Source of the DNA: Frigoriglobus tundricola
GTDB taxonomy: Bacteria; Planctomycetota; Planctomycetia; Gemmatales; Gemmataceae
Direction of reading: 5' to 3'
Assembly: GCF_013128195.2 (NCBI RefSeq)
Contig: NZ_CP053452.2
Coordinates: forward strand, 7,254,001 to 7,318,000
Length of the DNA stretch: 64,000 bases
The translations under genes were made by a program, and so were the position numbers. Under the pieces are notes generated by a model. That model ran no database searches and had not been told where the DNA came from. It worked only from the letters and a program-made list of their open reading frames with translations. Within the stretch, counting starts at the first letter, position 1; every line of letters begins with the position of its first letter. This document shows positions 6,152 through 48,650 of this stretch, piece by piece.

Positions 6152-7028
6152 CAGGGGGCACCTGCGGAGCGCGCTCAACACGTAAGGCACGGGAAAGTGG
6201 GGCGTTGGTATTTCCCCAGGAGGGCGTGTTGAATTTTCGCCAGGAGCCTCGCCCTCTCAGAAGATGAGGCCCCACCGGCCAGTTCAGGTCTTATTCACCG
6301 TCCGGTTGCGGCCGTCTGATTTCTGTGGCACAGGCTTTCCAGCCTGTGCTTCCTGGCACACAGGCTGGAAAGCCTGTGCCACAAACACAGAAAACAGACC
6401 GCACCCACCCGACCGTGTGTCAGGCGATACTTGACATTCGCAAGCGCGAACACGTCTTCGCCAGGGGTTCCCGAGGGGAACGGCACACAACCCCGCGCAG
6501 TGCGGGGTCAGTAACGAAGGCGCGGCCCGTACGGCGGCCGGCACCGTGCCGGTCCGGGGAACTGGCTTTAAGGAAAGGGGAAAGCAATCGCCGCGCCCGG
6601 GGTTTCATTTCCAGTGCGCTTTTTGCACGCCGCAGGGTTCGAATCCCGGATGGGGGCGTGACGCGATCGTTCCAATCGCCTGGCTGCGTGGCCTTTTTCG
6701 CTGCTTTTGTGCCCGATCGGGCTGCATGAATGGCGGGACCGGTTCTTGGATTCGGATTGCGGAACTGTGCGATTCGTGTCGCGCCACCCGTGCCGGGCGG
6801 CCGGTCCCTTTCGCGCCGATTCGATAATCGGTCGCGAGTGCGGTCGTCGGTCCATCACCTGTTGCGCTTCGTACTTCCGCGCTGGTCGTCGCGTGTTCAC
6901 GATCGGCAGAATGGGGGGACGAGCCCGTTTGTCGCGACCGGTCCGTGCGTTTCCCGTCTGAACAGGTCCCGCGCTGTGCGGGCGAGAGCGGCGAACGGCT
7001 CGTCACGGACCGGCGCTCGGTCGGCCGG
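6152..7028. other. 877-base non-coding stretch with hairpins
   Basis: No convincing gene is seen. Short open frames exist on both strands but overlap each other, lack recognisable domains and have Arg/Ser/Pro-rich compositions typical of shadow frames. The stretch carries a long nested palindrome at 6324-6383 (listed separately), a 7-base-pair hairpin at 6490-6508 and a sequence resembling a tRNA T-arm at 6633-6649 without a matching tRNA body. GC content falls between about 6640 and 6920 compared with the flanking genes, which could mark a decayed gene or foreign DNA. Confidence 0.5.
6324..6383. repeat. Nested palindromic intergenic repeat
   Basis: Two perfect 25-base arms (6324-6348 and 6359-6383) separated by a 10-base loop. 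Each arm is itself a hairpin: cacaggct and agcctgtg around a 4-base centre (ttcc or ggaa). The double-nested design is what dispersed REP/MITE-like elements look like. Whether it occurs elsewhere in this genome cannot be seen from one window. Confidence 0.8.
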
Positions 7029-24367: not shown

Positions 24368-27300
24368 TCAGGCCGGTTGAGGTGCGCTCGGCGGGACGCC
24401 CGCGTTCGTTTCGACGTGCGGGGCGAACAGGAAGTACAACACGGGAACGACGAACAGCGTCAGCACGGTGGAACTGCACAGCCCCCAGACGATCACCGTG
24501 GCCAGCGGGCGCTGGACGTCCGACCCCAGGCCGGTCGCCAGCGACGCCGGTAGCAGGCCCAGGATGGCGACGATCGCGGTCATCAGGATCGGCCGGAGCC
24601 GCTCCTGTGCGCCGTCCACGATCGCCCCCCGCAGCCCCAGCCCGGCTTCACGCAGGGCGGTGATCCCGCGGACCATCAGCACCCCGTCCATGATCGCGAT
24701 CCCGAACAGGGCACAGAACCCGACCCCCGTCGAAACGTTGACGTGCATCCCCCGCACCTCCAGAGCGATCACCCCGCCCACGCACGCGAACGGCACCCCG
24801 ACGAGCACCAGCAGGGCGGCCCGGAACGACCCGAACGTCACCATGAGCATCCCGAAGAGGACGAGCACGGTCGTCGGAATCAGATAAGTGAAGTGCTTCC
24901 GGGCGCGGGTGAGGTTCTCGAACATGCCCAGCCAGCCGACCTTGTACCCCGCCGGGACCGACGGCCCGATCTCGGCGTCGAACTTCTCTTGCGCTTCCTT
25001 GACGAACCCGCCCTGGTCCCGGCCCACGATGTCGCACCGGACCGTGACCCGGCGCCGGCCGCCCTCGCGGGCGATCAGCGTTTGGCCGTCCGCAACCGTG
25101 ATCTTCGCGACCGACGACAGCGGCACCGGTTGGCCGTCGGCGGTGTACACCGGGAGCCGGCCGATGGCCGTCACCGATTCTTTCGTCCGCCGGTCCAGCC
25201 GGGCCACGATGTCGAACTTGCGGTCCTCCTTGTACTGCGTTCCGACCGGCTCCCCGCCGATCGCCATGTTCACCAGCTTCGCCACGTCCTCAATGCGCAC
25301 GTTGTACCGGGCGCACAGGAGGCGGTCCGGCTGGATCACGAGCTGCGGTTGCGGACCCTCCTGTTCGATCGCCACGTCCTGCGCGCCCGGCACCCCTTTC
25401 ATCAGTGTGACCGTGCGCCGGGCGAGGTTCAGGAGCACGTCCGAATCGGCGCCGGTGAACTCGACGGCCAGGTTCGCGCTCGTCCCGTTCGTGTCCTCGG
25501 TCACGCTGTCGATAATGGGCTGGGTGAAGTTGAACCGCGTGGTCGGGAACTCCTCCCGGTAGCGCTTCCCGAGGGCGGCAACGAGTTCCTGCTTGGTCTT
25601 GAACTGCGTCCACTCCGAGCGCGGTTTGGGGCCGACCATCATCTCGATCCGGCTCGGCGGGAACGGGTCGGTGTTGTCGTCGTTCCGCCCGGCCTGGACG
25701 ATCACGAACCGCACGTCCGGGAACTCCGAGGCGATCTCCCGCAGCCGCCGGCCGTACTCGCTGGTCTGCTCCAGCGACGTGCCCTCGGGGTAGTTGGCCC
25801 GCACCCAGATCACGCCCTCGTCCATGTACGGCAGGAACTCGATACCGAGCTTCGGCACGACCCGCAGCGCGACCACGGCGACCCCGCACACGACCGCGGC
25901 GACCGTCAGCCACTGGGCGGCCAGGAGCCCGCGGAGCGTCGCCGCGTACAGCGGGCGGGCGAGCTTGAGGGCCGGGTTCTCCCACTCGTGGTAGCCGTTC
26001 CGGAACAGGACGACGGCCAGCACCGGGATCACGAACAGTGCGAACAGGAGCGACCCCGCCAGGGCGTACACCATCGTCAGTGCCATCGGCCGGAACAGCA
26101 GCCCCTCGATACTCGTCAGCGACAGCAGCGGGAGGTACGCGACCCCGATCATCAGGACGGAGAAGAACACCGGCCGCTCCATCTCCTGAGCGGCTTCCAG
26201 CACCACTTTTCGGACGTCCGGCCGCTCGTTCCGCTCGGTCGCGTGGCCCAGCCGCCGGGCGATGTTCTCGGCCACGATCACCGCGCCGTCCACGATGATC
26301 CCGAAGTCGATCGCCCCGATCGACAGGAGGCCGATCGGGATGCCGGTCAGGTACATCAGGAGCAGCGCGAACAGGAGCGCGAACGGGATCGTCGCGGCCA
26401 CCAGCAGGGCCGTCGCCGGGCGCCCCAGGAACAAGAGCAGCACCAGCACCACCAGGGTGACGCCGAGCAGGACGCTGTGGGCGACCGTGTGGAGCGTCGC
26501 GTCCACCAGTTGCTGCCGGTCGTAGTACGAAACGATTTTCACGCCCGGCGGAAGGGCGGGCGAGGCGTTCAGCTCGTCCACCGCGTCCCGCACGCGGTTC
26601 AGCACCTCCGACGGGTTCTCGCCCTTGCGCATCAGGACGATGCCCTCGACCGCGTCGTCGGTGCGGTCCTTGCTGAAGATGCCGTTGGGCGTCTTCGGCT
26701 CCGACCCGATGAGGGCGATGTCCCGGATGTAGATCGGGGTCCCCCCGACGGATTTGACGAACACCCCGCGGAGCTGCTGCTCGGTCTCGACCAGCCCGCC
26801 GCCCCGAACGACCAGCGACATGCTCCCGCGGCGCACCACGCTCCCGCCGGCGGCCGTGTTGTTCTTCTTGACCGCGTCCTCCATGTCCGAGAAGCTGACC
26901 CCGTACCGGTCGAGCTGGGCCGGGTAGAAGGTGACCGCGAGCTGCCGCTCCTGTCCGCCGAAGTTGGCGCACTCGGCCACCCCCGGCACCCGCAGGAGGC
27001 GCCGGGTGACCACCCAGTCGTTCAGCTCCCGGAGCGTCATCAGGTCGTGGGTGCCGTCGGACGCGAGCCGGTAGCGGTACACCTCGCCGTAGGCGGTGGC
27101 CAGCGGGCCGAGTTGCGGCTTCACGCCGTCCGGCAGGTCCACATCGGCCAGCTTCTCGGTCACGCGCTGGCGCGCCCAGTACAGCTCGGTCCCCTCCTCG
27201 AAGGTCAACTGCAGGACCGACAGGCCGAAGATGGTCCGGGAGCGGACGACCTGCACCTTCGGCGTGCCGAGCAGCGCGTTTTCGAGCGGGACCGTCACCT

Positions 27301-27490
27301 GGCGTTCGACCTCTTCGGGCGCCCGCCCAGAGTAGGTGGTGATGACCTGAACGGTGTTCGAGGAGATGTCGGGGTAGGCGTCCACCGGCTGCCGGGTGAA
27401 GGCGTAGGCCCCGGCCCCGGCGAGGGCGGCCGCCAGGAGCAGGACCAGCCACGGGCGGCGGACGGCGGCGGCAATCAGTGCGGCGATCAC
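24368..27490 (-). CDS. Heavy-metal-efflux RND transporter, inner-membrane subunit (CusA/CzcA family)
   Basis: A 1040-residue protein beginning with a GTG start whose GTGA overlaps the stop of the adaptor gene. TM1 is RPWLVLLLAAALAGAGAYAF, then QPVDAYPDISSNTVQVITTY, the hallmark of heavy-metal RND pumps. Two periplasmic halves and two membrane blocks follow; the second block includes VVPKLGIEFLPYMDEGVIWV and STGVGFCALFGIAIMDGVLM. The proton-relay region in the first block is SIGAIDFGIIVDGAVIVAEN, with the Asp pair. It exports a cation or drug using the proton gradient. The precise substrate (Cu, Ag, Zn, Co) cannot be read off. Confidence 0.93.
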   Translation of the reverse strand: MIAALIAAAVRRPWLVLLLAAALAGAGAYAFTRQPVDAYPDISSNTVQVITTYSGRAPEEVERQVTVPLENALLGTPKVQVVRSRTIFGLSVLQLTFEEGTELYWARQRVTEKLADVDLPDGVKPQLGPLATAYGEVYRYRLASDGTHDLMTLRELNDWVVTRRLLRVPGVAECANFGGQERQLAVTFYPAQLDRYGVSFSDMEDAVKKNNTAAGGSVVRRGSMSLVVRGGGLVETEQQLRGVFVKSVGGTPIYIRDIALIGSEPKTPNGIFSKDRTDDAVEGIVLMRKGENPSEVLNRVRDAVDELNASPALPPGVKIVSYYDRQQLVDATLHTVAHSVLLGVTLVVLVLLLFLGRPATALLVAATIPFALLFALLLMYLTGIPIGLLSIGAIDFGIIVDGAVIVAENIARRLGHATERNERPDVRKVVLEAAQEMERPVFFSVLMIGVAYLPLLSLTSIEGLLFRPMALTMVYALAGSLLFALFVIPVLAVVLFRNGYHEWENPALKLARPLYAATLRGLLAAQWLTVAAVVCGVAVVALRVVPKLGIEFLPYMDEGVIWVRANYPEGTSLEQTSEYGRRLREIASEFPDVRFVIVQAGRNDDNTDPFPPSRIEMMVGPKPRSEWTQFKTKQELVAALGKRYREEFPTTRFNFTQPIIDSVTEDTNGTSANLAVEFTGADSDVLLNLARRTVTLMKGVPGAQDVAIEQEGPQPQLVIQPDRLLCARYNVRIEDVAKLVNMAIGGEPVGTQYKEDRKFDIVARLDRRTKESVTAIGRLPVYTADGQPVPLSSVAKITVADGQTLIAREGGRRRVTVRCDIVGRDQGGFVKEAQEKFDAEIGPSVPAGYKVGWLGMFENLTRARKHFTYLIPTTVLVLFGMLMVTFGSFRAALLVLVGVPFACVGGVIALEVRGMHVNVSTGVGFCALFGIAIMDGVLMVRGITALREAGLGLRGAIVDGAQERLRPILMTAIVAILGLLPASLATGLGSDVQRPLATVIVWGLCSSTVLTLFVVPVLYFLFAPHVETNAGVPPSAPQPA

Positions 27491-28788
27491 TTGAAATCCC
27501 CCGCCGCGGGCCCGAAGTCGTTGGAGCCGACCGCCACGACGATGGCCGGCTTGAGCAGGATCGTGCCTTGCCCCAGAACGCGGTCGCCGGGTTTGAGCCC
27601 CTTCACGATCTCGAGTCGCCCCTCGCGCAGCTCCCCGACCTCGACCGGGGTGACGCGCCACACGTCCTGGCTCGGGGTCGCGACGAGCAAATAATCCGTG
27701 CGGCCGACGTGAACCACGCCGTCCGCCGGGGCGAGCAGGGCGTCGCGGGCGTCGGTGCCGAGGCCGATTTCGGCGAACATGCCCGGCCGCAGTTGGTCGT
27801 TGACGTCGTCCACGGTGAACAGAACCCGCAACGACCGGCGCTCGCGGGCGATCACGGGGGCGATACTTTTCACCCGGCCGGCGAAGGTCTGGTCGGGGAA
27901 GCCGAAGAACCGGGCCTCGCACCCGTCCCCGATCTTGACGCGCCCGAGGAATCCCTCCGGCACGTCGGCCATGACCAGGTCCACGTCCGCCGTGACCGAG
28001 CCGAGCAGGGCCGGGTCGAGGCCGGCCTGCTGGAGCTGGCGGGCGGTCGCGGCCTCGTTCCGCTCGGCCACGCGAATGGCCGTCTCCGCCTCGTAAATCT
28101 CCCGCTGCTCTTGAATCTCGTACTGGCGGAGAAGCGCTTGCTCCACGGCCAGCGCCTTCTTGGTTTCCGTTCCGGCCGCCTCCAGCCGCACCATCGTGGC
28201 GACGACGTCCTTTTGAGCGGCGGTCCGGGCGAGGGCCGCTTCGCGGATGCGGGCCGCCTGCATGGTGGAGAACGTGATATCGGCCTTGGCCTTTTGCCAG
28301 TCGGTGAACGAGGACAGTACGTCCGCCGAGTTGAATTGCCAGGCGTCGCTCGATCGCCGGAGCCAGGGGATCGCGGCCCACCCGGTCCGGACACTCTTCC
28401 CGTTCCCGGGACGGAGGCTGGCGACCACCGTACCGGTGACCGTCAGCGAGGGCGTCGTGACGCGGGTCGGGCGGACGTCGGCGGTCTGGAGCTTGGCGGC
28501 CAGCGGGGTGTTCGGCTCGACCCGGACGAGGAACGGTCCGACGACCCGCACCGGTTCCGGTCCGCCCCGGTCCTCCTGGGCCTCGCTCGTCTTGGCCGGG
28601 GGTTCCGAAAGCAGGTGAACGAGGACCGCGACGGTTATGACGAGGGCCACGACGAACTGGCCAACGGACCAGAGTGCGGCGAGCCGGGAGCGCCACGCGG
28701 GAGTGGGGCGTGCGACCCGCGCCGTCGGGCCGGTGGTCGTGTCTCCGGCCGGTGGGGGCGGGGACGGCGGTTGCGGTTGCTGGCTCAT
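27487..28788 (-). CDS. RND efflux periplasmic adaptor (CusB/HlyD family)
   Basis: A 433-residue membrane-fusion protein. A cytoplasmic Pro-rich tail is followed by one membrane segment (VGQFVVALVITVAVLVHLL, about residues 42-60). The beta-barrel/lipoyl half has VTGTVVASLRP, then a coiled-coil hairpin with TFSTMQAARIREAALARTAAQ and ending near RNEAATARQLQQAGLD. The adaptor barrel contains VSSI-like KSIAPVIARERRSLRV, VDDVNDQLRPGMFAEIGL, and VEVGELREGRLEIVKGLKPG near the end. It bridges the RND pump and the outer-membrane channel. Confidence 0.9.
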   Translation of the reverse strand: MSQQPQPPSPPPPAGDTTTGPTARVARPTPAWRSRLAALWSVGQFVVALVITVAVLVHLLSEPPAKTSEAQEDRGGPEPVRVVGPFLVRVEPNTPLAAKLQTADVRPTRVTTPSLTVTGTVVASLRPGNGKSVRTGWAAIPWLRRSSDAWQFNSADVLSSFTDWQKAKADITFSTMQAARIREAALARTAAQKDVVATMVRLEAAGTETKKALAVEQALLRQYEIQEQREIYEAETAIRVAERNEAATARQLQQAGLDPALLGSVTADVDLVMADVPEGFLGRVKIGDGCEARFFGFPDQTFAGRVKSIAPVIARERRSLRVLFTVDDVNDQLRPGMFAEIGLGTDARDALLAPADGVVHVGRTDYLLVATPSQDVWRVTPVEVGELREGRLEIVKGLKPGDRVLGQGTILLKPAIVVAVGSNDFGPAAGDFK

Positions 28789-29025
28789 CGAGTCAGATTG
28801 TGGTTGACCGGGACCGAGGTGCGGGACGCACCCGCGCTAGAGAGGATCGTATCACATCGCGCCGGCGGGGTTCAGAAACCGTCCGGTTTTCCCCGATTCT
28901 CCAAAGTGAAAGTTCGGCCATGTTTGCCGAGGGCCTCGTCCCGCTCAGCACGACGGAACGGATTTTTGACCGGTCGGCTGGCTGGGCAGGGCTCGGCCGT
29001 CGCAATTCGTCATTGCGTGCGGTGC
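28789..29025. other. 237-base gap inside the RND cluster
   Basis: Between the adaptor gene and the upstream membrane-anchored unknown. I see no gene, clear hairpin or promoter that I can support. If the cluster were one transcript, this would be an unusually long untranslated spacer; a separate promoter for the pump genes is equally possible. Confidence 0.35.
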
Positions 29026-29661
29026 TTACGGTGCGAGTGATGCCGAGGGGCGCGTGCCCTTTCTTGCGGCGCTGACAATATGGCATTCGGCGAGATTCAC
29101 GATCCTGACGAGTGCATACGGGCGACTCGTCCGGTCTTCCACCGTGAGGATTTTGAGGACGAGATTTACTATCACCTGAATAACAGGCGACGACGCGGTA
29201 TCGCTACTACTTGTGAAAGTGCCTTCAAGAACATAATCACTCGAATCTTCAATTTGAGGGGAGTAGCTTCCCGGGAAATGGAACATCACTACGAGCGCCT
29301 CCTCATGGACGGCATGAACCAGCGCGAAATAGTGCTGTGGCTTTTCTTCCGACACATCGACGGGCGACGTCCTGCACCGACAACCAGCAGTGGCGATACG
29401 GAGCCGCTTCCCCTTCAACCGAACTTCTCCAAGGCTCCCGCCTTCTTTGTAGACGTCGAAAAGTTCCTGAGGAGCAACGATCAGTGGTTTCTCGGGTACG
29501 AACGTGAACTCGGAAGGAGCCGGCGCGATTGCGTTTTTCGATCCGTCACCGGCGCGCTGTGCGGAAGCGATGCAAAGGAGGATGAGAAGAGCGACGAAGC
29601 CGACAATCACGGCGTAGGAAGCGAACCGGTTCACGACGTTGGCCTCACGCACTGCCCGCAT
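29026..29661 (-). CDS. Membrane-anchored OB-fold-like protein (tRNA_anti-like), unknown function
   Basis: A 211-residue protein with one N-terminal membrane segment (VNRFASYAVIVGFVALLILLC). The rest includes LIVAPQELFDVYKEGGSLGEVRLKGKRLRI, shaped like the start of the tRNA_anti-like OB-fold family, which has a conserved L-x-x-x-Y-x-x-N/G...K-G-K-x-x-x-V pattern, and ends in a long tail with KILTVEDRTSRPYALVRIVN. The identification is tentative. GC content and codon choice are lower than in the RND genes on either side, so it may be a later insertion. It lies between the adaptor and outer-membrane channel genes, but its role in efflux, if any, is unknown. Confidence 0.6.
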   Translation of the reverse strand: MRAVREANVVNRFASYAVIVGFVALLILLCIASAQRAGDGSKNAIAPAPSEFTFVPEKPLIVAPQELFDVYKEGGSLGEVRLKGKRLRIATAGCRCRTSPVDVSEEKPQHYFALVHAVHEEALVVMFHFPGSYSPQIEDSSDYVLEGTFTSSSDTASSPVIQVIVNLVLKILTVEDRTSRPYALVRIVNLAECHIVSAARKGTRPSASLAP

Positions 29662-29803
29662 TGCGCGCTAATTTTGCTCTACGGCGTTACGTTTCGCTCC
29701 GCGCGCGGGGCCCACCACATCCGGATCACGACGTCGGGCACGGCCCGACTACGCGGAGTGTCCGTGTCGGTCGGGCCGTGCCCGACGTCGTTTGTTCGGC
29801 GAC

Positions 29804-31345
29804 TTATCGCGGCGTCTGCTGGCCGATCGCGGCGCGGTAGCGGTACACGGCGCGCCAGTACGCGGCGCGGCTGGAGACGTAAGACCGGTACGTGTCCCGG
29901 AAGGTCCGTTCGGCGTCCAGCAGGTCCACGAGGGGGCGGCCGCCCGTCTGGTACGCCGTGGTAATGGCGTCGAACACGTCGCGGGCCAGTTTCAGCTGGG
30001 CGGCGGCGATATCGGCGGCCGTGGTTTGCGCCGCCGTGTACTCCTGGGCGGCGGTCGTCACCTCGGCCCGGAGCGCGACCACGGCGGCATCGTAGAGGTA
30101 CTGGTTCTGCACAACCGTCGAGCGCGCCTTCGCCCGGTTCCCCTGGTTGCGGTCGAACAGCGGTAGGGTCACGGTCGCGGCGGCCGTCCACGAACTGGCG
30201 TCCGGGAACCCGATCGCCTTCTGCTGGAACTGGCGCGTGTACCCGAACATGGGTGAGACCTGCGGATACCCCGCCCGGTCCGCAGCGATGACGCTCGCCC
30301 GCGCCTGGGACACCTTCCACCGGAGCGATAACAGGTCCGGACGGTTCTGGACCGCCAACTCGAACGCCTCGTTCGGCGGCGGCAGGTTGGCATCGAGGGG
30401 GGCGTCGAGGGTGCCGGCCACGTCGAAATCCGGGTCCGCGTTGGACCGCCCGATGATCGCGCGGAGCCGGGCCTTGGCCGTCACCAGCGCCGTTTCGGCG
30501 TCGCGGACGGCCCGGCGGGCGAGGGCCAGGTCCAGCCGGAGGCGGTTGAGTTCGACCTGCGTCTTCCCGCCGGCTTCGACCGCCTTGACGAGCGCGGCTT
30601 CGATCCGTTCCAGGTTGGTCACGTCCTGGCGGGTGAGGGCCAAAAGTCCCTTCGTTTCCAACACGTCGTAAAACGCCGAAGCCGCCTCGGCCACGCGCTG
30701 CCGGACGGTGTCCTCGAAGTCGGCCTCGGACGACCTGACGCCGCGGGCCGCGACCACCATGTTCGCGGCCCGCTTGCCGAACAGGAACCAGTCGATGGGG
30801 TACGTGACCTGTGCGTCGGTCTGGGGCGGACCGCCCTGGTCGTCCACCGTGAACGGCCGGGTGAGCGGCAGCAGTTGGGCGTCCGCAAACAGGCTCGGAT
30901 TGGGCCGCAGTGACGCCGTCAGGGCGTCGGCGTTCGCCTGGTTGATGAGTTCGAAACCGGCCCGCAACTTCGGATCGCTGACCAGCACGGCGTTGATGAC
31001 CTGATCGATGGTCAGTGCCGTTCCCGTCGGCACTTCGCGTGGCGGCGGAAGGGGCTTGCCGGGCGGATCGGCGGCCGCGGGCGGCGGCTGTTCGCGCAGG
31101 CCCACTTGCTCGATCTTCACCGCGCCGGCGTAAGGGGAGGGGGGCGCTGCGGCCGTTTGGCTCGGGGCGGCGCTCGAATTGCCCCCTGAAGCGCGGGGCG
31201 GTCCCGGCGCTCGGCCCGTCGAGGCAACGGGATCGTCCGGGATGGGGGCGAGCACGGCGCACCCGCTCAACGCGACCAGACAGGCCACGATCGGCCACGG
31301 CACCCGGAGGGCGGCGAGCGCTCGCGACCGTATTCGCACCGTCAC
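29804..31345 (-). CDS. Outer-membrane efflux channel (TolC/CzcC family)
   Basis: About 513 residues from a GTG at 31345, chosen because it places a lipoprotein signal (PWPIVACLVALSGC, lipobox LSGC) at the N-terminus; an earlier GTG at 31468 would overlap the sigma-factor gene. After a Pro-rich linker the two outer-membrane-efflux repeats follow: VINAVLVSDPKLRAGFELIN, LRPNPSLFADAQLLP, and in the second half AVQNRPDLLSLRWKVSQARA, then VTLPLFDRNQGN and ending YRAAIGQQTPR. It forms the outer-membrane tunnel of the tripartite pump. Confidence 0.9.
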   Translation of the reverse strand: MTVRIRSRALAALRVPWPIVACLVALSGCAVLAPIPDDPVASTGRAPGPPRASGGNSSAAPSQTAAAPPSPYAGAVKIEQVGLREQPPPAAADPPGKPLPPPREVPTGTALTIDQVINAVLVSDPKLRAGFELINQANADALTASLRPNPSLFADAQLLPLTRPFTVDDQGGPPQTDAQVTYPIDWFLFGKRAANMVVAARGVRSSEADFEDTVRQRVAEAASAFYDVLETKGLLALTRQDVTNLERIEAALVKAVEAGGKTQVELNRLRLDLALARRAVRDAETALVTAKARLRAIIGRSNADPDFDVAGTLDAPLDANLPPPNEAFELAVQNRPDLLSLRWKVSQARASVIAADRAGYPQVSPMFGYTRQFQQKAIGFPDASSWTAAATVTLPLFDRNQGNRAKARSTVVQNQYLYDAAVVALRAEVTTAAQEYTAAQTTAADIAAAQLKLARDVFDAITTAYQTGGRPLVDLLDAERTFRDTYRSYVSSRAAYWRAVYRYRAAIGQQTPR

Positions 31346-31443
31346 CCCCTGAGCGTTCGTTCTTTGCGAAGAGACGGGCGCATTATCGGCACAATCGATT
31401 CCGTCGGATGACTCCTTCCGAACTCCCCCCCAGAATTTCGGTA

Positions 31444-32301
31444 TCACTCCACCGCGGCGGCCGCCCACCGCGTCAGCTTGTCCGGGTTCAGGGTCATGTA
31501 CACTGCCCGGACCCCGTCCTCAATGCGCAGGGACATCACCTGCATCACCGCCCCACCGGTCGTGAACACGACCCCCGGCGCGCCGTTGACGGTGGCCGGG
31601 TGCATCTCGCAGTGCCACCGGCGCTTGCGGAACACCCCGGCCAGGAACCGGGCGGATCGGCTGCGTCCGTGGATGACGACCCGCGCCGACGTGGCCTTCC
31701 CGCCGCCGTCGGAGTTGACTTCGGCGTCCTCGGTGAGCATCTTCTCCACCAATTTGACGTCGCCCGCACGGCACGCGGCGATGAACCGCTCGGCCAGTCC
31801 GTCCGCTTCGTGTGGCGCCGGGCGGAACCGCGGCTCGTCGTGTCGCAGGTGTTCTCGGGCGCGACTGACGATCTGCCGCGCGTGGACTTCGGACTTGTCC
31901 AGCACCTCAGCGATCTCGGCGTACTCGTAATCGAAGACCGACCGCAGGAGGAACGCCGCGCGCTCGTCGGGCGAGAGGCGTTCCAGCATGAGCAGGAACG
32001 CCTGCTTCAGCGATTCGGCCAGGGCCGCGTTCGGCGCGCCAGCTCGGGTGTCAACGGGCTCGGGCACCCACGGGCCGATGTATTCCTGGCGCCGCCGGTC
32101 CGCGCGCAAGCGGTCGATGCACAAGCGGGTCGTCGTGCGGACCAGGAACCCCTCCGGTGAATCGACCGCGCCGGCCGTCTGGAACCGCACGAACGCGTCC
32201 TGAACGGCGTCTTCGGCGTCCAGGACGCTGCCGAGCATCCGGTACGCAACGGACATCATCCGGGGCCGCAGACCGAGTAGGACCGACGGATCGACATTCA
32301 T
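31444..32301 (-). CDS. SigJ-type ECF sigma factor with C-terminal SnoaL-like domain
   Basis: A 285-residue protein from the ATG at 32301 (8 bases after the upstream gene's stop). Sigma region 2: MMSVAYRMLGSVLDAEDAVQDAFVRF, with LVRTTTRLCIDRLRADRRRQ. Region 4: LERLSPDERAAFLLRSVFDYEYAEIAEVLDKSEVHARQIVSRAREHL. The last about 110 residues, from AERFIAACRAGDVKLVEKML, form a SnoaL-like domain. This domain layout marks the SigJ/ECF41 type, in which the C-terminal domain controls activity. Linked genes (SDR-type epimerase, cupin) fit the usual ECF41 neighbourhood. It may also drive the downstream RND channel gene. Confidence 0.9.
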   Translation of the reverse strand: MNVDPSVLLGLRPRMMSVAYRMLGSVLDAEDAVQDAFVRFQTAGAVDSPEGFLVRTTTRLCIDRLRADRRRQEYIGPWVPEPVDTRAGAPNAALAESLKQAFLLMLERLSPDERAAFLLRSVFDYEYAEIAEVLDKSEVHARQIVSRAREHLRHDEPRFRPAPHEADGLAERFIAACRAGDVKLVEKMLTEDAEVNSDGGGKATSARVVIHGRSRSARFLAGVFRKRRWHCEMHPATVNGAPGVVFTTGGAVMQVMSLRIEDGVRAVYMTLNPDKLTRWAAAAVE

Positions 32302-32309
32302 GGCGGGCC

Positions 32310-33215
32310 TCACGCGTGCAGCCATTCCAGGCGCCGGGGCACGAAGTCGAGCGTCCGCTTCGCCTTCGCGTTCGATGCGCCCCGTAACTTCGTTCCGTAA
32401 TACACGGCGTCTTCACCCGCCGCGACCAGGGCGTCCGCTTCGGTCACTCGTGGGGGCGGCGGAGCCCCGACCGCGCGGGCGAACGCCGGCAACCAGACGC
32501 TCACGGGGGAAGGGGCGTCATCGACGACATGATACACCCCCGGCGGGGCGGACAGCGCGGCGACCGTCGCGAGGGCCGCGTCTTCGATGTGGACCCACGA
32601 CCAGACCCCGGAACCGGCGCCGATGATCGGGATTTCCTGCCGTCGCACCTGATCGGCGCACGCGCCGTCGGGGTTGTACCAGGTGCCCGGTCCGTAATAG
32701 AACCCGTAACGCAGAGCGACGCCCTCCATGCCGTCGGCCGAGACGCGCCCCTCCAATTCGGTGTAGGTTCGCGCGGCTGCCGCCACCCGCGGGCTCGCCC
32801 CCGTGGCCAGCCCTTCGGACTCGTCGGCCAGTCCCTCACCCGGTTGGAGAAAGAAGCCGCTCGACTGCTGCACGTACCGGCGCACGCCGCACGCCCGCGC
32901 GGCCCGGTACAGGTTACCGCCACCCTCCAGCCGGAGCTTCCGATCTCCCGGGGCGGCGTCCGGCATGTCGGCGGGATTTTTGGGCAGGGCCGTCAACTGG
33001 TCGATGACGACCTCGGCCTTCGAGCGCCGCAGGGCCGCTCCGACGCCCTCCGCATCGAACGCGCTCACGTGCGCGACCGCCGCTCCGAGCGCGGCCAGGT
33101 TCTGCGCGCCCGCTTCGGACCGGCTCATGCCCGTGACCGTGTGCCCCCGGCGGATCAACTCGGTGACCAGCGGCAAGCCAATTGCGCCGCTGGCACCGGC
33201 AACAAACACGTTCAT
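32310..33215 (-). CDS. NAD-dependent epimerase/dehydratase family protein
   Basis: A 301-residue extended short-chain dehydrogenase starting MNVFVAGASGAIGLPLVTEL (dinucleotide-binding motif). ALRYGFYYGPGTWY and the segment VEPS-like SWVHIEDAALATVAAL correspond to the substrate region. The catalytic Tyr-x-x-x-Lys is degenerate; no clear Y-x-x-x-K is seen, so it may be an atypical or non-classical member. It lies between the cupin and the SigJ-type sigma factor. ECF41 sigma factors often control such oxidoreductases. Substrate unknown. Confidence 0.8.
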   Translation of the reverse strand: MNVFVAGASGAIGLPLVTELIRRGHTVTGMSRSEAGAQNLAALGAAVAHVSAFDAEGVGAALRRSKAEVVIDQLTALPKNPADMPDAAPGDRKLRLEGGGNLYRAARACGVRRYVQQSSGFFLQPGEGLADESEGLATGASPRVAAAARTYTELEGRVSADGMEGVALRYGFYYGPGTWYNPDGACADQVRRQEIPIIGAGSGVWSWVHIEDAALATVAALSAPPGVYHVVDDAPSPVSVWLPAFARAVGAPPPPRVTEADALVAAGEDAVYYGTKLRGASNAKAKRTLDFVPRRLEWLHA

Positions 33216-33247
33216 GCGTAACTCCTCCGAATGTCTTGCCGACGGCC

Positions 33248-33676
33248 TCACTCTTTCTTGGGCTCCGGGATCGCCAGCATCTTGGCGTCCCGCGGGTGCA
33301 AAACCACCGCGATGACGCGGGTCTTGCCCTTCGCGGCCGGGTTCTTCGACACGCGGTGCAGGCACCCGGTCGGCTCGTAGAACGTCTCACCGGCCTTGAA
33401 CACCTTCGTCGGTTGGTCATCGACCCCGAGTTCGTACTCGCCCTCCAGCACGTACCCGAAGACCGGGCCGGGGTGGCGGTGCGGCGTGCCGGCCTGTCCG
33501 GGTTCGAGTGCCACCTCCACGACCGTCGCCTTCGCGTCCTTGCCGTCCAGCTTCTCTTTGATGTCACGGGCCGAGAGCACCTTCACGGCCTCGGCTTCGT
33601 CGTGGCGAAGGGCGAGGGTCACCCCACTCGCCCCGGCGCCGATCCCGACCGCGAGTGTCAAAAGGGTTCGGATCAT
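33248..33676 (-). CDS. Secreted cupin-domain protein
   Basis: A 142-residue protein with an N-terminal hydrophobic signal/anchor (MIRTLLTLAVGIGAGASGV). The cupin barrel is visible as TPHRHPGPVFGYVLEGEYEL with two metal-binding histidines and a Glu, and the second motif ETFYEPTGCLHRVS with another His. Cupins of this type bind a divalent metal and may act on small molecules or peroxides. It is the first gene of a minus-strand cluster leading to the SigJ sigma factor. Confidence 0.85.
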   Translation of the reverse strand: MIRTLLTLAVGIGAGASGVTLALRHDEAEAVKVLSARDIKEKLDGKDAKATVVEVALEPGQAGTPHRHPGPVFGYVLEGEYELGVDDQPTKVFKAGETFYEPTGCLHRVSKNPAAKGKTRVIAVVLHPRDAKMLAIPEPKKE

Positions 33677-33863
33677 GGTCTTTCCTCCTCGAAATCGAGT
33701 GCCTCAATACCACCCCGCCGGCAACAAGGACGACGGGGCGGCTCAGATTGTGACAGCGCGGCGGGTTTTCTCAAAAAAATCTGTTGGACCCGGATAGAAC
33801 GAACATTCCGGAGTCGGCTGCTGGTTGAACCCACGAATTCGCGTCACATCGAGGGGACGTGTC

Positions 33864-34253
33864 ATGTCCGGTCACTACCTGGTCGCGGTTGTTGTGTTCG
33901 CGTGTGCGGTCTCACTCGCCCGCGCGGACGAGGCGGCGCTGACGCCCGTCGAGGCCCGCAAGAAGGTCGGTTCGAAGATCACCGTTCGGATGGACGTGAA
34001 GGCCGCCAAGGACCGGCTGGAAAAGCGCGGGGAGATCTACCTCGACGCCGCGGAAGACTTCAAGAGCGAGACGAACTTCGCGGTGGTGATCAGCAAGGCC
34101 GGCGCGGCGAGTCTGAAGGAGGCGGGCGTCGCGGACCCGGCCGAGCACTTCAAGGGGAAGTCGATCCGGGCGACCGGCACGGTCAAGGAGGTCGACGGCG
34201 TGCCGCGGATCGAGATCGATAAGGCGGAGCAGATCAAGGTGGCCGAAAAGTAA
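33864..34253 (+). CDS. Small secreted protein with OB-fold-like region
   Basis: A 129-residue protein. The signal peptide is MSGHYLVAVVVFACAVSLAR (the ATG at 33864 is preferred over one 13 codons earlier). The mature part has VGSKITVRMDVKAAKDRLEKR, then NFAVVISKAGAASL and KGKSIRATGTVKEVDGVPRI, which resembles the bacterial OB-fold pattern of small periplasmic nucleic-acid- or ligand-binding proteins (YdeI/BOF-like). No catalytic residues are visible. Divergent from the cupin cluster. Confidence 0.7.
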   Translation: MSGHYLVAVVVFACAVSLARADEAALTPVEARKKVGSKITVRMDVKAAKDRLEKRGEIYLDAAEDFKSETNFAVVISKAGAASLKEAGVADPAEHFKGKSIRATGTVKEVDGVPRIEIDKAEQIKVAEK

Positions 34254-34680: not shown

Positions 34681-34771
34681 TTTCGAGCCGTTCTCGCTCT
34701 CCCGGCGCGCGGCTTCGTTGTATTTTGGTTGTTGGGATCGGTGCGTGCGGCATTTCCCCAAGGGGTTCGTC

Positions 34772-36346
34772 ATGTCCTCGGACCGGGTGCTCGTGGTGAT
34801 CGGCCGGACCCGCCACAAGATGGTGGTGGCCGAGCTCCAGGAGGCGGTGAAGCGCGGGGCGAAGTTCGTCGAGCTGCGGCTCGACTTCCTCGCCAAAGCC
34901 GTGGACTTCAAGCGCCTCACGCCGCTCAAACAGTGCCCGTGGGTCGCCACGCTGCGCCGCCCCAGTGACGGGGGCCGGTACAACGGCACGGAACCCGAGC
35001 GGATGATGATCCTGCGCCAGGCGATCGTGTCCGGGGCGTTCGAGTGGGTCGACCTGGAGACGGACATCGCCGGCTCGGTCCCCCGGTTCGGCCCGGTGAA
35101 GCGCATCATCAGCTACCACAACACCACCGAGACGCCCGCGAACCTGGAGGAGATCTACGCGGCCATGCTGGACCAGGACGGCGACGTGTACAAGGTCGCC
35201 GTCGCCGCCCACACGACCGATGACGTGGCCCGCGTGATCCAGCTCCAGCGCTCCGCGCCGAAGCCGACGGTGGCGTTCTGCATGGGCGACCTGGGCCAGC
35301 CGACCCGGTTCCTGTCGCTGAAGTTCGGCGCCCCGTGGATCTACGCGGCGTTCAACAAGGAGCGCGGCATCGCCCCGGGGCTGCCGAGCTTCGACGAGTT
35401 CCGCACGACGTACCCGGTCAAGTCGATCAGCGCGGACACGAAAGTGTACGGCGTCGTGGGCGACCCGGTGGGCCACAGCCTGAGCCCGCTCCTGCACAAC
35501 CACATGTACAAGAAGCTGGGCGTGGACGCGCTGTACCTGCCGTTCCGCGTGCTCCGCGGGCAGCTCGGGCCCGCGCTGGAGGCGTACGAGAAGATCCCCG
35601 TCCACGGGTACAGCGTCACCATCCCGCACAAGGAAGCGGCGGCGGCCCTGGCCCGCGAGGCCGAGCCCAACGTCCAGGTCACCGGCGCGGCGAACACGCT
35701 GGTGCGGCGCGACGACGGCAAGTTCGTCGCGGCCAACACCGACTACGCGGCGGCGACCGAGTCGCTCAAGGCGCACCTCGTGGACCGGGCCAAGGGCGGT
35801 CCGGTGACGCAGCTCAGCCAGCTCTCGGTGCTCCTGCTCGGGGCCGGCGGCGTGGCCCGCTCGGTCGCGTTCTCGCTGCACCGCGAGGGCGCCCAGATCA
35901 CCATCACCAGCCGCACCTACGAGCGCGCCCAGCGGCTCGCCGAGGACGTGAAGTGCAAGGCGGTGGACTGGCATGCCCGCCACAACGTGACCTTCGACGT
36001 GCTGATCAACTGCACGCCGGTGGGGATGCACCCGAACGTGGACGAGTCGCCGTGCCACTTCAGCGTGCTGAAGCCGGGGACGATCGTGTTCGACACCATC
36101 TACACGCCGGAAACGACCCTCCTGATCCGCGAGGCCCTCGCCCGCGGGTGCGACACCATCACCGGCGTGGACATGTTCGTGCGCCAGGCGGCCCGGCAGA
36201 TCGAGCTGTTCACCGGGCTCCTCCCGGACGTCACCGTCATGCGGCAGATCATGCGCAAGGCGCTGTCCCCGCTCACGAAGGCGTTCGAGGAGAACGAGGG
36301 GGGCGACGTGCCGCACCCCGAGCCGCCGAAAGCGGACGACGAGTAG
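34772..36346 (+). CDS. aroDE: Fused 3-dehydroquinate dehydratase / shikimate 5-dehydrogenase
   Basis: A 524-residue fusion of two shikimate-pathway enzymes. Residues 1-215 are type I dehydroquinate dehydratase: AKFVELRLDFLAKAVD, WVDLETDIAGSV, RIISYHNTTETP with the catalytic His, VYKVAVAAHTTDD with the Schiff-base Lys, and FCMGDLGQPTRFLSL. Residues 230-500 are shikimate dehydrogenase: YGVVGDPVGHSLSPLLHN, VTIPHKEAAAALA with the catalytic Lys, TGAANTLV, VLLLGAGGVARSVAFSL, and NCTPVGM. It performs steps 3 and 4 toward chorismate; fusion is the rule in planctomycetes and plants. The ATG at 34772 follows AAGGGG. Shikimate kinase follows directly. Confidence 0.95.
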   Translation: MSSDRVLVVIGRTRHKMVVAELQEAVKRGAKFVELRLDFLAKAVDFKRLTPLKQCPWVATLRRPSDGGRYNGTEPERMMILRQAIVSGAFEWVDLETDIAGSVPRFGPVKRIISYHNTTETPANLEEIYAAMLDQDGDVYKVAVAAHTTDDVARVIQLQRSAPKPTVAFCMGDLGQPTRFLSLKFGAPWIYAAFNKERGIAPGLPSFDEFRTTYPVKSISADTKVYGVVGDPVGHSLSPLLHNHMYKKLGVDALYLPFRVLRGQLGPALEAYEKIPVHGYSVTIPHKEAAAALAREAEPNVQVTGAANTLVRRDDGKFVAANTDYAAATESLKAHLVDRAKGGPVTQLSQLSVLLLGAGGVARSVAFSLHREGAQITITSRTYERAQRLAEDVKCKAVDWHARHNVTFDVLINCTPVGMHPNVDESPCHFSVLKPGTIVFDTIYTPETTLLIREALARGCDTITGVDMFVRQAARQIELFTGLLPDVTVMRQIMRKALSPLTKAFEENEGGDVPHPEPPKADDE

Positions 36347-48593: not shown

Positions 48594-48650
48594 AAAGTCG
48601 AAAGTCGTAAAGTCCGGTCCTCACGGCGCGACTTTACGACTTTCGACTTT
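48594..48650. repeat. Perfect hairpin between aceE and aceF
   Basis: Two perfect 21-base arms (48594-48614 and 48630-48650) with a 15-base loop, made of aagtcgaaagtcgtaaagtc-like sequence. The left arm overlaps a 13-base direct repeat (aagtcgtaaagtc at 48586 and 48602). It may reduce read-through from aceE into aceF. A related 14-mer occurs upstream of mutS. Confidence 0.85.

What the first reader, a model, noticed from the sequence alone, without database searches (positions are those of the whole stretch)
24368..33676. SigJ-type sigma factor, epimerase and cupin leading into an RND efflux set with an extra membrane protein
Seen: all genes from 33676 down to 24368 share one strand; cupin, epimerase and sigma gene are 8-32 bases apart, then the efflux channel, an unrecognised membrane-anchored protein, adaptor and pump follow. 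Inference: the ECF41-like factor, which carries its own SnoaL regulatory domain, may control efflux in response to an unknown ligand. The lone OB-like protein could be a new accessory part of the pump.
Basis: partly seen in the sequence, partly recalled or inferred. Interest (0 to 1): 0.55.

Follow-up and report, generated by a model that had tools for sequence, protein, structure and literature searches.

The report
Sigma-factor cassette beside a metal pump
A self-regulating stress-response gene cassette of a known type happens to lie next to a metal-efflux pump whose gene set has been split by an extra, orphan gene, and relatives give no sign that the three belong together.

Summary
The gene layout is as described, but it looks like two ordinary modules side by side. 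Module one is a cupin, epimerase/reductase and ECF41 (SigJ-type) sigma factor cassette. It follows published ECF41 rules: sigma regions 2 and 4, a SnoaL_2 tail, and a TGTCACA-n16-CGTC site ending 52 bases before the cupin start. Relatives keep cupin-(epimerase)-ECF41, mostly with this site, but no fetched copy lies beside a matching RND gene. Module two is a CzcA/ZneA-like heavy-metal RND pump. Eighteen closest pump loci in other genomes carry no ECF41, cupin or epimerase match in the fetched flanks. Two relatives hold both modules, not adjacent. In 14 of 15 loci with both genes, channel and adaptor overlap or nearly touch (most upstream starts). Here they are 1,015 bases apart, separated by a 22-bp perfect hairpin and the "OB-like" gene. 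That gene is low in G+C (56% against 66-71%) and has no credible homologue in 58 other relatives, 391 other genomes of the phylum, a species-level genome collection (close relatives only), plasmids or phages. It is best read as an insertion, not a conserved pump part. Read-through from the ECF41 operon into the channel gene in this organism cannot be excluded. Low novelty.

The parts
33729..33755 (-). ECF41-type promoter site TGTCACA-n16-CGTC, upstream of the cupin gene
   Evidence: Only exact match of TGTCACA-N15-18-CGTC in 64 kb; shuffles give a mean of 0.24, and 21 of 100 have at least one, so the place matters more than the count. Motif reported in PMC3426412. Similar sites stand before related cassettes.
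33248..33676 (-). Small cupin with an N-terminal hydrophobic stretch, probably exported (inference)
   Evidence: Cupin_2, 8.3e-16. 64-80% identical copies beside ECF41 in 7 fetched loci.
32310..33215 (-). NAD(P)-binding epimerase/reductase-like SDR (the E of the ECF41 'COE' partners)
   Evidence: Epimerase 8.8e-16, NAD_binding_10 1.3e-10. 77-79% identical copies in the same cassette order in L062 and L104.
31444..32325 (-). ECF41 (SigJ-type) sigma factor; start probably 32301
   Evidence: SigJ model 298.7 bits above cut-off 271. SnoaL_2 3.6e-6. PDB 5xe7 SigJ 4.9e-41. WVPEP, DGGGK and NPDKL motifs.
29804..31345 (-). TolC-like outer-membrane channel (GTG start 31339 or 31345)
   Evidence: OEP 8e-50.
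29728..29791 (.). 22-bp perfect inverted repeat, 20-nt loop, between the channel and the orphan gene
   Evidence: RNA fold of 29715-29800 -62.8 kcal/mol, z -8.0. No similar copy elsewhere in the own genome.
29026..29661 (-). Orphan low-GC ORF with a predicted N-terminal membrane helix; most likely an insertion splitting the pump gene set
   Evidence: GC 0.561, GC3 0.613 against 0.84-0.97 for the nine other genes measured. No credible homologue. No match in 18 pump loci.
27487..28788 (-). RND periplasmic adaptor (CusB/CzcB-like)
   Evidence: HlyD_D23 1.5e-12; CzcB/NccB family model 3.8e-21, below its cut-off.
24368..27499 (-). Heavy-metal RND pump (CzcA/CusA family); exact start not fixed
   Evidence: TIGR00914 894.5 bits, cut-off 701. 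Best solved relative ZneA 4k0e, 869 bits.

Best explanation
Two independent modules lie side by side. (A) An autoregulated ECF41 cassette: a signal felt by the sigma factor's SnoaL-like tail releases the factor, which directs RNA polymerase to TGTCACA-n16-CGTC at 33729-33755 and so transcribes cupin, epimerase and its own gene (positive feedback). (B) A CzcA/ZneA-type tripartite pump that probably exports divalent metal ions, expressed independently of the sigma factor. The orphan gene and hairpin between channel and adaptor are a later insertion that broke an originally touching gene pair. Shown: gene identities, promoter motif and place, conservation of each module without the other, no detectable relative of the orphan. 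Inferred: signal sensing, substrate, independent expression, the insertion event.
For: ECF41 site before the cupin and, exact, near the ECF41 cassette in 10 of 15 fetched loci, with a one-letter variant in an eleventh. In 80 ECF41 loci from the genome collection, TGTCAC-n15-19-CGTC occurs 52 times against 6 for the reversed control in 967 kb. Cupin-epimerase-ECF41 in L062 and L104, cupin-ECF41 in L061, L063, L069 (ECF41 partial) and L103, and ECF41-CMD-cupin in L064, none with RND matches. After ECF41, L061, L062, L063 and L103 continue with an NAD_binding_10 gene, not a channel. 0 of 18 pump loci have ECF41, cupin or epimerase in the fetched flanks. G008 carries both modules over 2.6 Mb apart, G028 on different contigs. 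Channel and adaptor overlap or lie within 12 bases in 14 of 15 loci (most upstream starts), against 1,015 here. Orphan: GC3 0.61, no credible homologue.
Against: No terminator-like site was listed on the minus strand in the gap between sigma and channel, and no sigma-70-like promoter before channel or adaptor (planctomycete promoters may differ), so co-transcription here is not excluded. 52 of 80 collection loci lack the ECF41 site within 1.8 kb upstream. A site of this kind is found in 21 of 100 shuffles of the window, and the looser TGTCA-n16-20-CGTC is not enriched (2 found, 3.6 expected). Three of the 15 pump loci with a channel had under 2 kb upstream of it (L055, L056, L060). L101 has a channel-adaptor gap of at least 130 bases; if the adaptor began only at the first matched residue, gaps in other loci would reach 174 bases. 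No expression data.
Confidence: 0.82

Rival explanations
1. One extended operon: the ECF41 factor drives cupin, epimerase, itself and, by read-through, the channel or whole pump, coupling metal efflux to the ECF41 signal.
For: Same strand, 98-104-base gap between sigma and channel, and no terminator-like site or separate sigma-70-like promoter found there on that strand.
Against: The adjacency was not seen in any of 18 pump loci, 15 fetched ECF41 loci or 80 collection ECF41 loci (at least four of the 80 repeat records among the 15). No second exact motif before the channel. A very stable hairpin lies after the channel, though without a T-run on that strand.
Confidence: 0.13
2. The orphan membrane-anchored protein is a genuine accessory subunit of this pump in this lineage only.
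For: Same strand, inside the pump set, predicted N-terminal membrane helix.
Against: No match in any of 18 pump loci and no credible one in the collections searched. Foreign-looking composition. No fold or family evidence.
Confidence: 0.04
3. The 29026-29661 ORF is not a gene but a decayed or non-coding insert (compatible with the two-module reading).
For: Stop-free runs this long are not rare in such sequence (623 of 5000 simulations), and the stretch holds a longer one in another frame. No credible homologue.
Against: G+C differs between codon positions (0.62/0.45/0.61), and the N-terminus predicts a clean helix.
Confidence: 0.25

Closest known systems
ECF41 sigma factor / COE modules (Wecke et al. 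2012, PMC3426412; M. tuberculosis SigJ, PDB 5xe7)
   Same: Sigma regions 2 + 4 with SnoaL-like tail, epimerase partner co-directional, TGTCACA-n16-CGTC site before the first gene, cupin partner (reported there in four cases, in the same orientation as the sigma gene), linker motif W-x-PEP.
   Different: Linker reads WVPEP, not WLPEP, here and in the five closest homologues examined. Planctomycetes are not among the ten phyla listed in 2012; later lists were not checked.
CzcA/ZneA heavy-metal RND pumps (TIGR00914; PDB 4k0e)
   Same: Full-length match. The DFGIIVDGA stretch aligns with the same letters in ZneA. Channel-adaptor-pump gene order.
   Different: Channel and adaptor genes separated by a 1,015-base insert. 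Substrate untested.

Membership tests
ECF41 sigma factors | ECF sigma regions 2 and 4 with C-terminal SnoaL-like extension | tested here: met
[quoted passage not shown]
   WVPEP here and in the 5 closest homologues; WLPEP in 13 of the 14 remaining loci, the other (L066) being a truncated match without it
ECF41 sigma factors | Neighbouring carboxymuconolactone decarboxylase, oxidoreductase or epimerase gene, no anti-sigma gene | tested here: met
   Epimerase directly upstream; no anti-sigma family among the nine neighbouring proteins scanned
ECF41 sigma factors | TGTCACA-n16-CGTC promoter before the target operon | tested here: met
   33729-33755; sequence match only
ECF41 sigma factors | Activity controlled by the C-terminal extension | not testable with these tools
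   Needs reporter assays
CusA/CzcA heavy-metal RND pumps | TIGR00914 above curated cut-off | tested here: met
   894.5 bits against 701.45
CusA/CzcA heavy-metal RND pumps | Metal export | not testable with these tools
   Needs sensitivity assays
   No family or PDB match (weak NTR hit E 0.027); model not confident past residue 38; no fold search run

The most novel reading that the evidence does not exclude
In this one lineage the ECF41 cassette has landed upstream of a metal-pump gene set and captured its channel gene by read-through, while an orphan membrane protein inserted into the set, giving a young, lineage-specific link between the ECF41 signal and metal efflux.
Probability: 0.12. Interest if true: 0.35.

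Novelty: new member of a known kind. Interest (0 to 1): 0.18.

Why it matters
It extends the published ECF41 pattern (COE or cupin partner plus TGTCACA-n16-CGTC promoter) to a cassette family in Gemmataceae planctomycetes. It also shows that same-strand adjacency here should not be read as shared function: each module is found in relatives without the other.

Tried and rejected
Extended operon controlling efflux: rejected as the leading reading because adjacency is not conserved and no second exact ECF41 site precedes the channel. Accessory pump part: rejected because none of 18 pump sets from other genomes shows the gene.

OB fold: the structure prediction was too poor for a fold search, so none was run. 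BLASTP against the neighbouring divergent small protein (33825-34253) gave nothing meaningful. Two weak phylum hits for the orphan (E 0.002, 31% over 58 residues; E 0.01, 23% with five stops inside) were taken as chance. The genome-collection scan for the orphan uses a single protein and reaches close relatives only; viral contigs were not scanned for it.

The hairpin as a dispersed repeat: a search of the own genome with the region gave only itself and its own reverse arm. Genome-wide ECF41 regulon: 9 exact motif sites against 5 for the reversed control. Two precede the two cupin-ECF41 cassettes. The other seven were looked at only by ORF listing and show no obvious regulon. The epimerase at E <= 1e-60 was found in 2 of 59 genomes, own and G014. 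A paper search for residues of ZneA gave listings only.

Full report
Observation. Domain scans give Cupin_2, Epimerase/NAD_binding_10, Sigma70_r2 + Sigma70_r4 + SnoaL_2, OEP, no family, HlyD_D23 and ACR_tran. NCBIfam adds the SigJ subfamily and the CusA/CzcA heavy-metal subfamily, each above its cut-off. The only reading not confirmed is 'OB-like': the orphan has no Pfam or NCBIfam match at 0.01, no PDB match, and only a weak sub-threshold NTR hit; the single-sequence AlphaFold2 model gives a usable N-terminal helix only (residues 2-39).

The sigma cassette. A paper on group ECF41 (PMC3426412; passages and section 21 read) reports COE partners, cupins in four cases in the same orientation as the sigma gene, a WLPEP linker motif and the promoter TGTCACA-n16-CGTC. 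The window has such a site at 33729-33755, ending 52 bases before the cupin ATG. It is the only exact match of TGTCACA-n15-18-CGTC in 64 kb; shuffles give a mean of 0.24, with at least one in 21 of 100, and a looser pattern is not enriched. So the weight lies in its place and its recurrence in relatives. In the whole genome nine exact sites exist (five for the reversed control); one is this site and one precedes a second cupin-ECF41 cassette at G000:C1:6262076. A review (PMC8999054; passages read) places SigJ/ECF41 among factors held back by a SnoaL-like tail and suggests activation by a conformational change.

The cassette in relatives. ECF41 homologues at E <= 1e-60 occur in 9 of 95 genomes of the family, the own genome included. 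I fetched 12 ECF41 loci (one of them the own second copy) and 3 more; L068, L069 and L103 are short contigs. Cupin lies with ECF41 in 7 of these 15: L061, L062, L063, L064, L069 (ECF41 match partial), L103, L104. The related epimerase lies between them in L062 and L104. An exact TGTCACA-n-CGTC site (n 16 or 17) precedes the cassette or the ECF41 gene in 10 of 15: L061, L063, L064, L069, L103, L104 and, without cupin, L065, L067, L070, L105. L062 has CGTCACA instead. L066, L068, L071 and L072 showed none; L068 is cut near the gene. Behind ECF41, L061, L062, L063 and L103 carry an NAD_binding_10 gene, and in L064 a CMD gene lies between ECF41 and cupin. L104 has a divergent CMD gene and a second motif on that strand. 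None of the 15 has a channel, adaptor or pump match. TGTCAC-n15-19-CGTC occurs 52 times against 6 for the reversed control in 967 kb, and 28 of 80 have it within 1.8 kb upstream of ECF41 on the same strand; 52 of 80 do not. L109 is titled Gemmataceae bacterium and L113 Zavarzinella formosa; since G014 is given as same genus and G028 as same family, the host is taken to be a member of Gemmataceae (inference).

The pump. Its best solved relative is ZneA (4k0e, 869 bits), ahead of CusA (504 bits), which points to divalent metal ions (the substrate is inference). Close pump homologues (E <= 1e-250) occur in 15 of 95 family genomes, own included. I fetched 18 pump loci of the closest homologues from other genomes, about 60-83% identical. 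None has an ECF41, cupin or epimerase match, and none has a match to the orphan (hits of at least 38 and 32 bits shown). All 18 have the adaptor next to the pump; 15 have the channel too (not L054, L097, L100). Of those 15, 12 have about 2.8 kb or more upstream of the channel and 3 (L055, L056, L060) have less than 2 kb. In 14 of 15 the channel and adaptor frames overlap or lie within 12 bases if the most upstream start is used (for L098 the match itself overlaps); L101 has a gap of at least 130 bases. Counted to the first matched adaptor residue, the gaps in the 14 run from overlap to 174 bases. G008 holds both the ECF41 and the pump over 2.6 Mb apart on one contig, and G028 on different contigs of a draft.

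The insert. In the window the channel and adaptor are 1,015 bases apart. The insert holds a 22-bp perfect inverted repeat (-62.8 kcal/mol, z -8.0) and the orphan, whose G+C (0.561) and third-position G+C (0.613) are below those of the nine other genes measured (0.66-0.71, third position 0.84-0.97). The orphan matched 1 of 59 close genomes, namely the own one, and 3 of 392 genomes drawn from the phylum, namely the own one and two chance-level hits. It gave nothing in the species-level genome collection (close relatives only), plasmids or phages. A gene gained recently by this lineage, or a non-coding insert, fits better than an ancestral pump subunit. That it is coding is likely but not shown.

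Verdict. The arrangement is a neighbourhood of two known modules plus an orphan insertion. Local co-transcription of the channel with the sigma gene remains possible, because neither a terminator-like site nor a separate sigma-70-like promoter was found in the gap.

Noticed in passing
G000:C1:6262076-6263499 (L063): Second cupin-ECF41 cassette in the same genome with its own TGTCACA-n16-CGTC site and an NAD_binding_10 gene downstream.
   Followed up: partly
L104:11276-11303: In G496 a second ECF41-type site lies on the strand of a divergent CMD gene next to the cupin-epimerase-ECF41 cassette: a possible two-target ECF41 regulon.
   Followed up: partly
L061, L062, L063, L103, L104: The five closest ECF41 homologues and the window's read WVPEP where 13 of 14 others examined read WLPEP (the cupin-linked L064 among them; one truncated match has neither).
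   Followed up: partly
window 33825-34253 (+): Small protein divergent from the cupin gene, with no Pfam match; it shares the intergenic region that holds the ECF41 site.
   Followed up: no
window 34718-36346 (+): Looks from sequence (recalled, not scanned) like a fused 3-dehydroquinate dehydratase-shikimate dehydrogenase, followed by a possible shikimate kinase frame.
   Followed up: no
window 6324-6383 and 48594-48650: Perfect inverted repeats of 25 bp (10-nt loop) and 21 bp (15-nt loop); the second is built of AAAGTCG-like units.
   Followed up: no
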